Of a stretch of DNA of 64,000 bases, positions 39,163-41,057 are shown one piece after another. The position numbers and the translations under genes were made by a program. The DNA is taken from NCBI RefSeq assembly GCF_900290195.1, contig NZ_OLMF01000004.1, positions 1,477,501-1,541,500 of the forward strand, in the 5' to 3' direction. Numbering within the stretch: position 1 is the stretch's first letter; each line of letters begins with the position of its first letter. Source of the stretch: Anaerococcus marasmi (GTDB lineage Bacteria > Bacillota > Clostridia > Tissierellales > Peptoniphilaceae). The notes below the pieces were generated by a model. The model saw only the letters and a list, made by a program, of their open reading frames with translations, had not been told where the DNA came from and did not search any database.

Positions 39163-39302
39163 AAAATCCTCCCTTTCTATTACTTAGTAAGCTTTTACCC
39201 AAAAGGAGAAATAAATACCGATTTATAAAAAAATCATCAAATATTTGAAAAAATAGGTAAATAAAAAGCATATTAGAAATATGATAGACTTTAGACAAAA
39301 TC

Positions 39303-39432
39303 ACCCTTATTTCGACCAGGTAAATAGCCATTGAATTGGCTATTTACCCCTCTGACTAGTGCGAAAGCACGGAAAAGTTACTAAGTAACGAGTCAGAGTA
39401 CGAAGTGAGTGGAGAAATCTGATTAGATCTCT
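39303..39432. repeat. Left part of a 168-bp REP-like palindromic repeat split by IS110
   Basis: It begins with the inverted repeat ACCCTTATTTCGAC (39303-39316). It then has a perfect 12-bp hairpin (GGTAAATAGCCA/TGGCTATTTACC, 39319-39348) and a three-way junction at 39350-39398: an 8-bp closing stem CTCTGACT/AGTCAGAG with inner hairpins GTGC-GAAA-GCAC and GTTACT-A-AGTAAC. The next hairpin starts GGAGAAATCT-GATT-AGATCT and is cut by the IS110 insertion after CT at 39431-39432. Confidence 0.7.
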
Positions 39433-39445
39433 TGTATCATATAAC

Positions 39446-39640
39446 TATAGTCATTCTATGGAAAAAACAATGGAATACTATACATTAAACATAGTGTTGT
39501 GGAATGTGTGAGATCTCTATAGCTTTGACTATTTCGCGGAGACTACAACCACATAACTATGTTTTTTTGTTAATTAGTTAGATATCGCTAGACGATTTAT
39601 TGTACAAGGATACGAGACATAACTTATGTGGAAGCACAAC
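39446..39640 (+). ncRNA. Candidate IS110 bridge RNA
   Basis: Three parts match the known bridge-RNA order. (1) A 5' stem-loop at 39446-39482, 13 bp with one bulged C. (2) A target-type loop closed by AACATAGT..TGTGG (39488-39502) and CCACA..ACTATGTT (39549-39563). Its left guide AGATCTCT (39511-39518) equals the left flank plus core (39425-39432), and its right guide CGCGGAG (39535-39541) pairs with CTCCGTG at the right junction (41018-41024), with one G-T wobble. (3) A donor-type region with TAGTTAG (39575-39581), equal to the right end (41010-41016), and TACAAG (39603-39608), complementary to CTTGTA at the left end (39431-39436). Exact RNA ends and the donor-loop fold are uncertain. Confidence 0.6.
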
Positions 39641-39662
39641 AATAATTTTAAAGGAGTTTTCT

Positions 39663-40832
39663 ATGATCTATTTGGGTATTGATGTTTCTAAATTTAAGCA
39701 TAACTGCTATCTTGCTGTTGAGGATAATTTTGATAAAGGGTGTCATTTTGAAATTAAGAATTCAAGAGATGGTTTTGATTTTTTACTAAAAAAACTTTCT
39801 GATTTTGATAAGGATAAAATTAGAATAGGATTAGAATCCACCGGTCACTATCATCTCAATCTTTCAAGATTTCTACTAGATTTGAATTTTAACATTCATT
39901 TCTTTAACCCTTATCAAACTAGTCTTTACAGAAAGGCTGATAGTTTTAGAAATACAAAAACCGATAAGGTTGATGCTTTCTTCATTGCAAAGCTTCTAAG
40001 AGCTACTGACTCTAATCCTACTCACAATGAATTGTATCATAATTACGAACTTAAGTCACTAACTAGATACAAATCTTCTTTAAAAAGTGATAGGGTTAAG
40101 TTAAAGAATGCTATTGTAAGCCACTTAGATTTAGTATTTCCTGAATTAAGTAGCATCTGCAATGATGTATTTTGTAAATACACTCTAGAGGTATTAAAAG
40201 AATATCCATCTGCAGATAAGATTGCTAAGGCAAACTTAACAAGGTTAAGCAACATAATTAAAAAAGCTTCTAAAGGAAGTCACTCTAAAGACAAGGCAAT
40301 AGAGATTAGGAATGCTGCAAGAAGGTCAATAGGGATTGATTCATCTGCTGTATCTTTTAGATTAGTTCAAGATATTAAATCCTTGGAATTCTTATGTAAA
40401 CAAATCAAAGAAGTTAATGAGGAAATTAAGCCTCTCTTAGATTGTTTAGATAGTCCAATAATGAGTATACCTGGTGTAGGAATAGAGATAGGCCCTAGTC
40501 TAATAGCTGAGATTGGAAACATAGAAAAATTTGAAAATCCAAGTAAACTATTGGCTTATGCAGGTCTAGATCCATCAATCAGTCAATCAGGAACAATGCA
40601 TTCAAACTATAGTAGTATGAGCAAAAGAGGTAGTTCATACTTAAGAGATGCTCTATTCATAGCCGCATTTTTAATATGCCAAAATGACGAAACATTTAGG
40701 ATTTACTATGAGAAAAAGAAAAATGAAGGTAAACACCATTACGTAGCCCTGACACACGTAGCCAGGAAATTAACTAGAGTAATATTTCACCTTCTAAATA
40801 GAAATCAGAAATTTGTAAGCCAAACGTCCTAA
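39663..40832 (+). CDS. IS110 family transposase (DEDD recombinase)
   Basis: A 389-residue recombinase. The N-terminal RuvC-like DEDD domain begins YLGIDVSKFKHN, with GLESTGHYH and KTDKVDAFFIAKLL following. The C-terminal Tnp_20 domain has SIPGVGIEIGPSLIAEIG, LLAYAGLDPSISQSG and SKRGSSYLRDAL, which holds the catalytic serine. The frame opens at 39600, but AAGGAG before the ATG at 39663 fixes the start. The gene is intact. Confidence 0.95.
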   Translation: MIYLGIDVSKFKHNCYLAVEDNFDKGCHFEIKNSRDGFDFLLKKLSDFDKDKIRIGLESTGHYHLNLSRFLLDLNFNIHFFNPYQTSLYRKADSFRNTKTDKVDAFFIAKLLRATDSNPTHNELYHNYELKSLTRYKSSLKSDRVKLKNAIVSHLDLVFPELSSICNDVFCKYTLEVLKEYPSADKIAKANLTRLSNIIKKASKGSHSKDKAIEIRNAARRSIGIDSSAVSFRLVQDIKSLEFLCKQIKEVNEEIKPLLDCLDSPIMSIPGVGIEIGPSLIAEIGNIEKFENPSKLLAYAGLDPSISQSGTMHSNYSSMSKRGSSYLRDALFIAAFLICQNDETFRIYYEKKKNEGKHHYVALTHVARKLTRVIFHLLNRNQKFVSQTS

Positions 40833-40858
40833 AAAGATATGAAATTTAAAGAAAATTT

Positions 40859-40885
40859 TAAGCTATCAAAAACGATAGCTTATTT
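40859..40885 (+). terminator. Hairpin after the IS110 transposase gene
   Basis: TAAGCTATC and GATAGCTTA form a perfect 9-bp stem with a six-base loop, followed by a short T-rich stretch. Confidence 0.65.
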
Positions 40886-41019
40886 GTCATGCCAATAATT
40901 CGTTATTTAACCTAACGGAAGTCAATTCTTGATGAATAAATTAAGTTTTTATTCAACTTTTTATGAATTTTAATTTGTTAATTTTTTTAATTTTCGACTT
41001 GACTTCCGATAGTTAGTCT

Positions 41020-41057
41020 CCGTGCGTTCGTTTCACTCTCTTAGTCGAGATAAGGGT
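41020..41057. repeat. Right part of the split REP-like repeat
   Basis: It continues the target hairpin (CC at 41020-41021) and ends with GTCGAGATAAGGGT (41044-41057), which is complementary to the left boundary ACCCTTATTTCGAC at 13 of 14 positions. Together with 39303-39432 it rebuilds a 168-bp imperfect palindrome. Confidence 0.65.

What the first reader, a model, noticed from the sequence alone, without database searches (positions are those of the whole stretch)
39431..41019. IS110 element with a readable bridge RNA whose guides match its own junctions
Seen in sequence: upstream of an intact IS110 transposase, a region folds as a 5' hairpin (39446-39482), a closed loop (39488-39563) and a second guide-bearing region. 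Loop segment AGATCTCT (39511-39518) equals the left flank plus CT (39425-39432). CGCGGAG (39535-39541) pairs with CTCCGTG (41018-41024), with one G-T wobble. TAGTTAG (39575-39581) equals the right end (41010-41016). TACAAG (39603-39608) is complementary to CTTGTA (39431-39436). Known: IS110/IS621 elements use such target and donor loops around a CT core. Inference: this fixes the element ends and predicts target AGATCT-CT-CCGTG and donor TTAGT-CT-TGTAT. Four independent short matches in the expected order and orientation are unlikely by chance.
Basis: partly seen in the sequence, partly recalled or inferred. Interest (0 to 1): 0.85.

Follow-up and report, generated by a model that had tools for sequence, protein, structure and literature searches.

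The report
IS110 jumping gene with guide RNA
This is an ordinary but very legible bacterial jumping gene whose own small RNA appears to spell out both its own ends and where it lands, here the tip of a repeated DNA hairpin; its relatives suggest that the landing address was rewritten during evolution.

Summary
Window 39431-41017 (one CT core counted) is an intact IS110-group insertion sequence of an Anaerococcus genome. Its left end encodes a bridge RNA whose target loop matches both sides of the insertion site and whose donor loop matches both element ends. Four copies sit in this genome. Twelve element-free copies of the palindromic target repeat read through the predicted joined site; 11 of 12 match AGATCTCTCCRYG exactly.

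Covariation supports the pairing. Over 28 distinct copies from relatives, each target loop fits its own flanks better than other copies' flanks (permutation p = 5e-5 each side; within the window's family alone 0.011). Donor guides track the element ends between lineages.

The window's lineage instead uses the apex of a palindromic repeat, with its donor loop nearly unchanged. Palindrome targeting is known for IS621; ribosome-binding-site targeting is, from recall, known for IS900. A new, well-documented member of a known kind. Nothing was tested experimentally.

The parts
39431..41017 (+). IS110-group insertion sequence, 1587 bp counting one CT core (to 41019 with both cores)
   Evidence: Same element in 4 copies in this genome with different flanks; lengths 1587, 1587, 1587, 1586
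39423..39432 (+). Left target plus CT core (TTAGATCTCT)
   Evidence: 9 of 10 bases identical to left target guide 39509-39518
39431..39436 (+). Right donor (core CT + TGTA), left tip of element
   Evidence: Complementary to right donor guide 39603-39608
39435..39440 (+). -10 box TATCAT of predicted circle-junction promoter
   Evidence: 17 bp from TTGACT of the right end once the ends are joined
39446..39482 (+). 5' stem-loop of bridge RNA
   Evidence: MFE fold; not recovered in the 9-sequence consensus fold
39487..39564 (+). Target-binding loop of bridge RNA
   Evidence: MFE fold; closing stem conserved in 9 aligned bridge RNAs
39509..39518 (+). Left target guide TGAGATCTCT
   Evidence: Co-varies with left flank across copies
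39534..39541 (+). Right target guide TCGCGGAG
   Evidence: Pairs with top strand 41018-41024 over its last 7 bases; co-varies across copies
39542..39543 (+). Putative handshake guide AC
   Evidence: Pairs with GT 41016-41017; same AC in 12 of 12 copies of this family
39575..39581 (+). Left donor guide TAGTTAG
   Evidence: Identical to 41010-41016; lineage B has AGCTGG at both places in 10 of 11 copies
39603..39608 (+). Right donor guide TACAAG
   Evidence: Complementary to left tip; core plus 3 bases co-vary between lineages
39650..39656 (+). Ribosome-binding site of transposase (AAAGGAG)
   Evidence: Sequence
39663..40832 (+). IS110 recombinase, 389 aa, DEDD (D7, E58, D101, D104) plus Ser309
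   Evidence: PF01548 and PF02371 over cut-off; aligned to IS621 and ISCro4; positions
40999..41004 (+). -35 box TTGACT of predicted circle-junction promoter
41010..41017 (+). Left donor, right tip of element (TAGTTAGT)
   Evidence: Identical over 7 nt to left donor guide
41018..41025 (+). CT core plus right target (CTCCGTGC)
   Evidence: Pairs with right target guide: 6 identical plus 1 wobble of 8
39286..39430 (.). Left half of the interrupted palindromic target repeat (ends approximate, by eye)
   Evidence: Similar sequence in unoccupied repeats L029-L040
41020..41085 (.). Right half of the interrupted palindromic target repeat (ends approximate, by eye)

Best explanation
An intact, probably recently active IS110-group element. 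Inferred cycle: the DEDD recombinase excises the element as a circle at the CT core. Joining the right and left ends creates a sigma-70-like promoter (TTGACT-17-TATCAT) that transcribes the left-end bridge RNA. The donor loop pairs with the circle junction (TAGTTAG..CTTGTA) and the target loop pairs with AGATCT-CT-CC(A/G)YG near the apex of an interspersed palindromic repeat. The recombinase exchanges strands at CT and reinserts the element. Shown here: ends, copies, empty sites, guide matches, covariation, conserved catalytic residues. Inferred from the IS621 literature: transcription, circle, strand exchange.
For: Guide matches and shuffles; 4 copies and boundaries; 12 empty target repeats; covariation of target guides and donor guides; conserved RNA outside the target guides; junction promoter scores 10-11 of 12 in the circle versus 7-9 integrated in the 12 copies of this family; recombinase domains, and catalytic residues aligned to IS621 8wt6 and ISCro4 9t56.
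Against: No RNA, circle or transposition was measured. Guides are imperfect at several copies: in this family L054 has a C-A mismatch in the right guide and L044 matches at 5 of 8 plus 2 wobbles; in the relatives the left guide matches only 6 of 10 in L078, L064, L046 and L059. The second handshake position of the donor loop (A, 39610) does not pair with the target base C at 39429, and the first is a G-T wobble. The left donor guide stops one base before the core, unlike my reading of IS621. MFE fold z-score only -2.1; only 3 of 34 consensus pairs show changes on both sides. No Rfam family reached its threshold in the window.
Confidence: 0.95

Rival explanations
1. The four matches are coincidences in an AT-rich element, and the transposase chooses sites by protein-DNA contacts alone.
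For: Each single motif turns up in 0.3 to 7% of shuffles; some copies carry mismatches.
Against: No shuffle of 200,000 or of 100,000 gives three ordered matches; guides follow flanks across 28 distinct copies; donor guides follow the ends between lineages.
Confidence: 0.01
2. A bridge-RNA element, but a dead relic in this genome that no longer moves.
For: No activity measured; one copy of sister lineage B in this genome is split.
Against: All four copies of this family have an open recombinase frame; three of the four, the window's included, are 99 to 100% identical in DNA with different flanks; guides, ends and junction promoter are intact.
Confidence: 0.12
3. The palindromic repeat travels with the element, so the flanks are part of a larger mobile unit rather than a target.
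For: Three of four copies sit in the same repeat.
Against: 12 repeats in the genome have no element; copy L017/L041 sits in a different sequence that keeps the guide-matched bases.
Confidence: 0.03

Closest known systems
IS621 (IS110 group, E. coli; PDB 8wt6; PMC11208160, PMC11208158)
   Same: DEDD + Ser recombinase, bridge RNA in the left end, CT core, target loop then donor loop, a right donor like CTTGTAT (read from residue names in passages of PMC11208158, which give position 10 once as T and once as A), sigma-70-like promoter rebuilt at the circle junction, insertion in REP palindromes
   Different: Weak protein similarity (74 bits); other target; right target guide of 7 pairing nt against 4 (G77-G80) in the passage; left donor guide stops one base before the core
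ISCro4 (PDB 9t56)
   Same: Best-scoring solved relative by sequence, E = 5e-20
   Different: Only the protein was compared
seekRNA elements ISEc21 and ISEc11/ISXne4 (PMC11187229)
   Same: Same guide principle; natural reprogramming reported there for ISEc11 and ISXne4 (passages)
   Different: Different targets; ISEc11 is treated there as an IS1111-family member
REP-associated IS110 elements ISPpu9, ISPpu10, ISPa11 (PMC1525189)
   Same: Insertion at extragenic palindromes (passages)
   Different: Pseudomonas hosts; a 2006 study, before guide RNAs were known
IS900 (recalled: inserts between ribosome-binding site and start codon, opposite strand)
   Same: Same class of site as the Anaerococcus sister lineages
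   Different: From memory; the passages of PMC8141618 seen did not state it

Membership tests
IS110 family | DEDD RuvC-like domain (PF01548) plus Transposase_20 (PF02371) | tested here: met
   122.1 and 75.8 bits, both over cut-off
IS110 family | Catalytic D, E, D, D and Ser-Gly aligned with IS621 D11, E60, D102, D105, S241 | tested here: met
   D7, E58, D101, D104, S309 align with 8wt6 chain positions 13, 62, 104, 107, 243 (counted by hand), a constant offset of 2 from the paper's numbers
IS110 group (not IS1111) | Left non-coding end longer than right and carrying the bridge RNA | tested here: met
   230 versus 185 nt; guides in the left end
IS110 group (not IS1111) | No long (7-17 bp) sub-terminal inverted repeat | tested here: inconclusive
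   Longest exact inverted match between the first 50 and last 51 nt is 7 nt, TAACTAT, AT-rich and unevenly placed
Bridge RNA system | Target loop pairs bottom-left and top-right of target, core included | tested here: met
   (by sequence complementarity only)
Bridge RNA system | Donor loop pairs both element ends | tested here: met
   6-nt left donor found in the donor region in 33 of 34 copies, 5-nt right donor in 32 of 34; in the window element the left guide does not reach the core
Bridge RNA system | RNA is transcribed and binds the recombinase; circular intermediate | not testable with these tools
   Only a predicted junction promoter

The most novel reading that the evidence does not exclude
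The window's lineage is a natural retargeting event. Bridge-RNA elements of this clade ancestrally home on ribosome-binding sites of opposite-strand genes, with a guide carrying CCUCCU-like sequence and the Shine-Dalgarno sequence left intact. In the window's branch the target loop was rewritten to home on the apex of palindromic repeats, while the donor loop stayed nearly unchanged. Target loops would then evolve as independent address modules between classes of harmless, recurring sites.
Probability: 0.6. Interest if true: 0.5.

Novelty: new member of a known kind. Interest (0 to 1): 0.36.

Why it matters
It gives a clean natural data set for bridge-RNA rules outside E. coli: boundaries, empty sites, and copies in which target guides differ while the rest of the RNA is nearly unchanged. 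It shows guide mismatches that occur in nature, and suggests that a lineage changed its class of target while keeping its donor loop. An Anaerococcus recombinase with a readable RNA is also a candidate enzyme for programmable insertion.

Tried and rejected
Rfam over the window: no family at gathering threshold, so no known RNA model helped. The first extraction script failed for all 12 copies of the window's family and mis-framed the right guides of the five A2 copies because of a wrong anchor; it was corrected and its permutation values are not used. The first shuffle count counted a match only if the left target guide was present; it was redone and the new numbers are given. RNA consensus folding gives 3 of 34 pairs with changes on both sides and leaves the 5' hairpin unpaired, so the RNA fold rests more on conservation than on covariation of stems. 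I considered that lineage D targets terminators, because two of six inspected left flanks look like terminator hairpins; the other four do not, so I dropped the claim (by eye). I considered ribosome-binding-site homing by IS110 elements to be new: judged by titles and abstract starts, searches list nothing that I recognise as reporting it (one search found no paper at all), but I recall IS900 as a precedent, so I do not claim novelty. Class-wide boundary calling is rough: several best boundaries are doubtful (L087, L089, L092, L094).

Full report
What was checked. The window lies in an Anaerococcus genome (window = G000:C2:1477501-1541500; genomes of the same genus that carry the element match, by coordinates, Anaerococcus sp. 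Marseille-P3915, A. lactolyticus and A. ihuae). Three or four of them in order occur in 0 of 200,000 mononucleotide and 0 of 100,000 dinucleotide shuffles of the RNA region. The recombinase (39663-40832, 389 aa) has both IS110 domains over their cut-offs and aligns with IS621 and ISCro4, including the residues whose mutation abolished IS621 recombination (PMC11208158, passages).

Ends and copies. Four copies exist in this genome, with reading frames at G000:C2 11262-12428, 770169-771335, 1517163-1518329 (the window) and 1711181-1712347. The first two are 99.1 and 99.8% identical to the window over 1.6-1.7 kb; the fourth (L057 = L019) is 96.8%, with one listed difference before 40304 in the element and many just after it. 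Identity between copies ends within a few guide-matched bases of the CT core on both sides; relatives with other targets narrow it to CT. Length is 1587 bp with one core (1586 in L057).

Target. Three of four copies sit in the same interspersed palindromic repeat. Twelve element-free repeats with at most 3 mismatches to a 27-base probe exist in the genome; 11 of 12 hold AGATCTCTCCRYG exactly, and the twelfth, L036, differs in its first base. One repeat with its flanking hairpins folds into a long hairpin (-81 kcal/mol over 245 nt, RNA parameters), and the insertion point lies about 7 to 10 bases from its terminal loop. A 171-base probe from one repeat gives 38 matches in the genome, many of them pieces of the same repeats. 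The copy L017/L041 sits in a different sequence that keeps the guide-matched bases (left 8 of 10 identical plus one wobble, right 6 of 8 plus one wobble).

Covariation of the target loop. Guides and flanks were extracted for 34 copies in four sets: A, the window's family (12 copies, 4 genomes); A2, nearest relatives (5 copies, 2 genomes); B (11 copies, 5 genomes); C (6 copies, 2 genomes). Three rows with N at the junction (L061, L067, L068) and three identical rows (L042, L058, L060) were dropped, leaving 28; the right flank of L047 is cut short by the contig end. Own guides match own flanks at 176 of 224 left positions (permuted mean 96.8) and 95 of 168 right positions (permuted mean 49.7), core left out, p = 5e-5 each, the floor of 20,000 permutations. 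Related copies are not independent, so the narrower tests matter more: A alone (9 rows) 60 of 72 against 52.4 (p = 0.011) and 36 of 54 against 29.0 (p = 0.011); B alone (9 rows) p = 0.0023 and 0.0031; one row per distinct target loop (16 rows) p = 5e-5 each side. Concrete cases: A. lactolyticus has left guide TGAGGTCCCT and flank TGAGGTCCCT where the window has TGAGATCTCT and TTAGATCTCT; A. ihuae has right guide CATGGAG at CTCCATG in 4 of 5 copies. In this genome L057 carries a C-to-T change in the right guide that fits its own CTCCATG flank, but L054 sits at the same flank with the unchanged guide and a C-A mismatch, so this single case is only suggestive. Weak rows exist: the left guide matches only 6 of 10 in L078, L064, L046 and L059.

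Donor loop. In A and A2 the donor guides hardly change while the target guides do. Between lineages they follow the element ends: left donor AGTTAG in A, A2 and C but AGCTGG in B; right donor CTTGT in A and A2, CTCGT in B, CTTAT in C, each with its counterpart in the RNA at an offset that is constant within a set. Found: left 33 of 34 (not L053), right 32 of 34 (not L045 and L047). One cross-match is noise: ACGAG, the B counterpart, also occurs in many A donor regions (70 of 132 comparisons).

Promoter. Joining right end, CT and left end gives TTGACT-17-TATCAT in the window element, 10 of 12 consensus bases; the integrated copy scores 8. The circle scores 10 or 11 in 12 of 12 A copies, 11 in 4 of 5 A2, 11 in 10 of 11 B (L047: 12, with 18 bp) and 11 in 6 of 6 C copies. 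Against this: L045 scores 7 in the circle and 9 integrated, and some integrated B and C copies reach 10 by chance of their flank. IS621 is reported to rebuild a promoter at its circle junction (PMC11208160, passages).

A finding outside the question. In A2, B and C the core lies in a purine-rich stretch starting AGGA on the opposite strand (22 of 22). An ORF of at least 60 aa starts 7 to 17 nt from the core in 5 of 5, 7 of 11 and 5 of 6 copies, against 0 of 12 in the window's family and means of 0.06 to 0.16 at other places in the same flanks; the five that fail have short or no frames (L052, L053, L067, L068, and L061 with N). The element end keeps AGGA(GG) joined to the gene, so the ribosome-binding site survives. 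In 391 genomes drawn evenly from the class, 42 have a relative of lineage B (E up to 1e-60). So about half, not all, fit. Other AGGAG-bearing CT sites in these flanks also precede ORFs often (13 of 34), as expected of real ribosome-binding sites. A protein tree of 20 rows puts the window's family beside the G087 elements of A2 (95/96), apart from B plus C (80/73), with the distant lineage D outside; L045 is not in the tree, the root is a midpoint and the program warns about long branches. Three lineages with ribosome-binding sites around one with palindromes favour a switch in the window's branch. That is inference.

Literature. Seen: PMC11208160 (abstract, sections 6, 7, 12, 21 and passages), PMC11208158 (passages), PMC11187229 (passages and section 13), PMC1525189 (passages), PMC8141618 (passages). 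No paper in that library holds both Anaerococcus and IS110. The library lacks most subscription papers, so absence there is weak. From recall, IS900 inserts between ribosome-binding site and start codon; no call confirmed it.

Verdict. The element is a new member of a known kind; its value is the clarity of the natural experiment and the likely retargeting between classes of site.

Noticed in passing
L047, L048, L052, L053, L062, L064, L066-L069, L022 (lineage B); L046, L056, L059, L061, L063, L065 (lineage C); L045, L078-L081 (A2): Related IS110 elements insert inside the ribosome-binding site of an opposite-strand gene (17 of 22 by an ORF test) and leave AGGA(GG) intact; the left target guide ends in TCCT in 22 of 22.
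   Followed up: partly
L008-L014 (lineage D, 7 copies in this genome); six inspected as L023-L028: A distant IS110 lineage (23% identity) inserts at T-rich sites; the presumed right guide matches the right flank in several copies by eye, e.g. GCCAATAAAA against TTTTATTGGC in L024; left guides of L023 and L028 fit poorly.
   Followed up: partly
L038 1420-1615, L032, L033: The palindromic target repeat is flanked on both sides by the same or a similar terminator-like hairpin (e.g. GCAGATTTCTCTGC, GCTGGCTTTGCCAGC), as if the repeat sits between duplicated terminators.
   Followed up: no
L019 (G000:C2:1709000-1714500): A lineage D reading frame (202-1374, minus) and a copy of the window's element (from about 1950, plus) lie about 0.6 kb apart in opposite orientation.
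   Followed up: no
L057 against window 40304 onward: This copy looks like a mosaic: nearly identical non-coding left end and first half of the gene, then dense differences from 40304, suggesting recombination with an unseen relative.
   Followed up: no
L042 and L050 (G005): Two copies show the same target flanks next to single Ns; probably one insertion duplicated by scaffolding.
   Followed up: no
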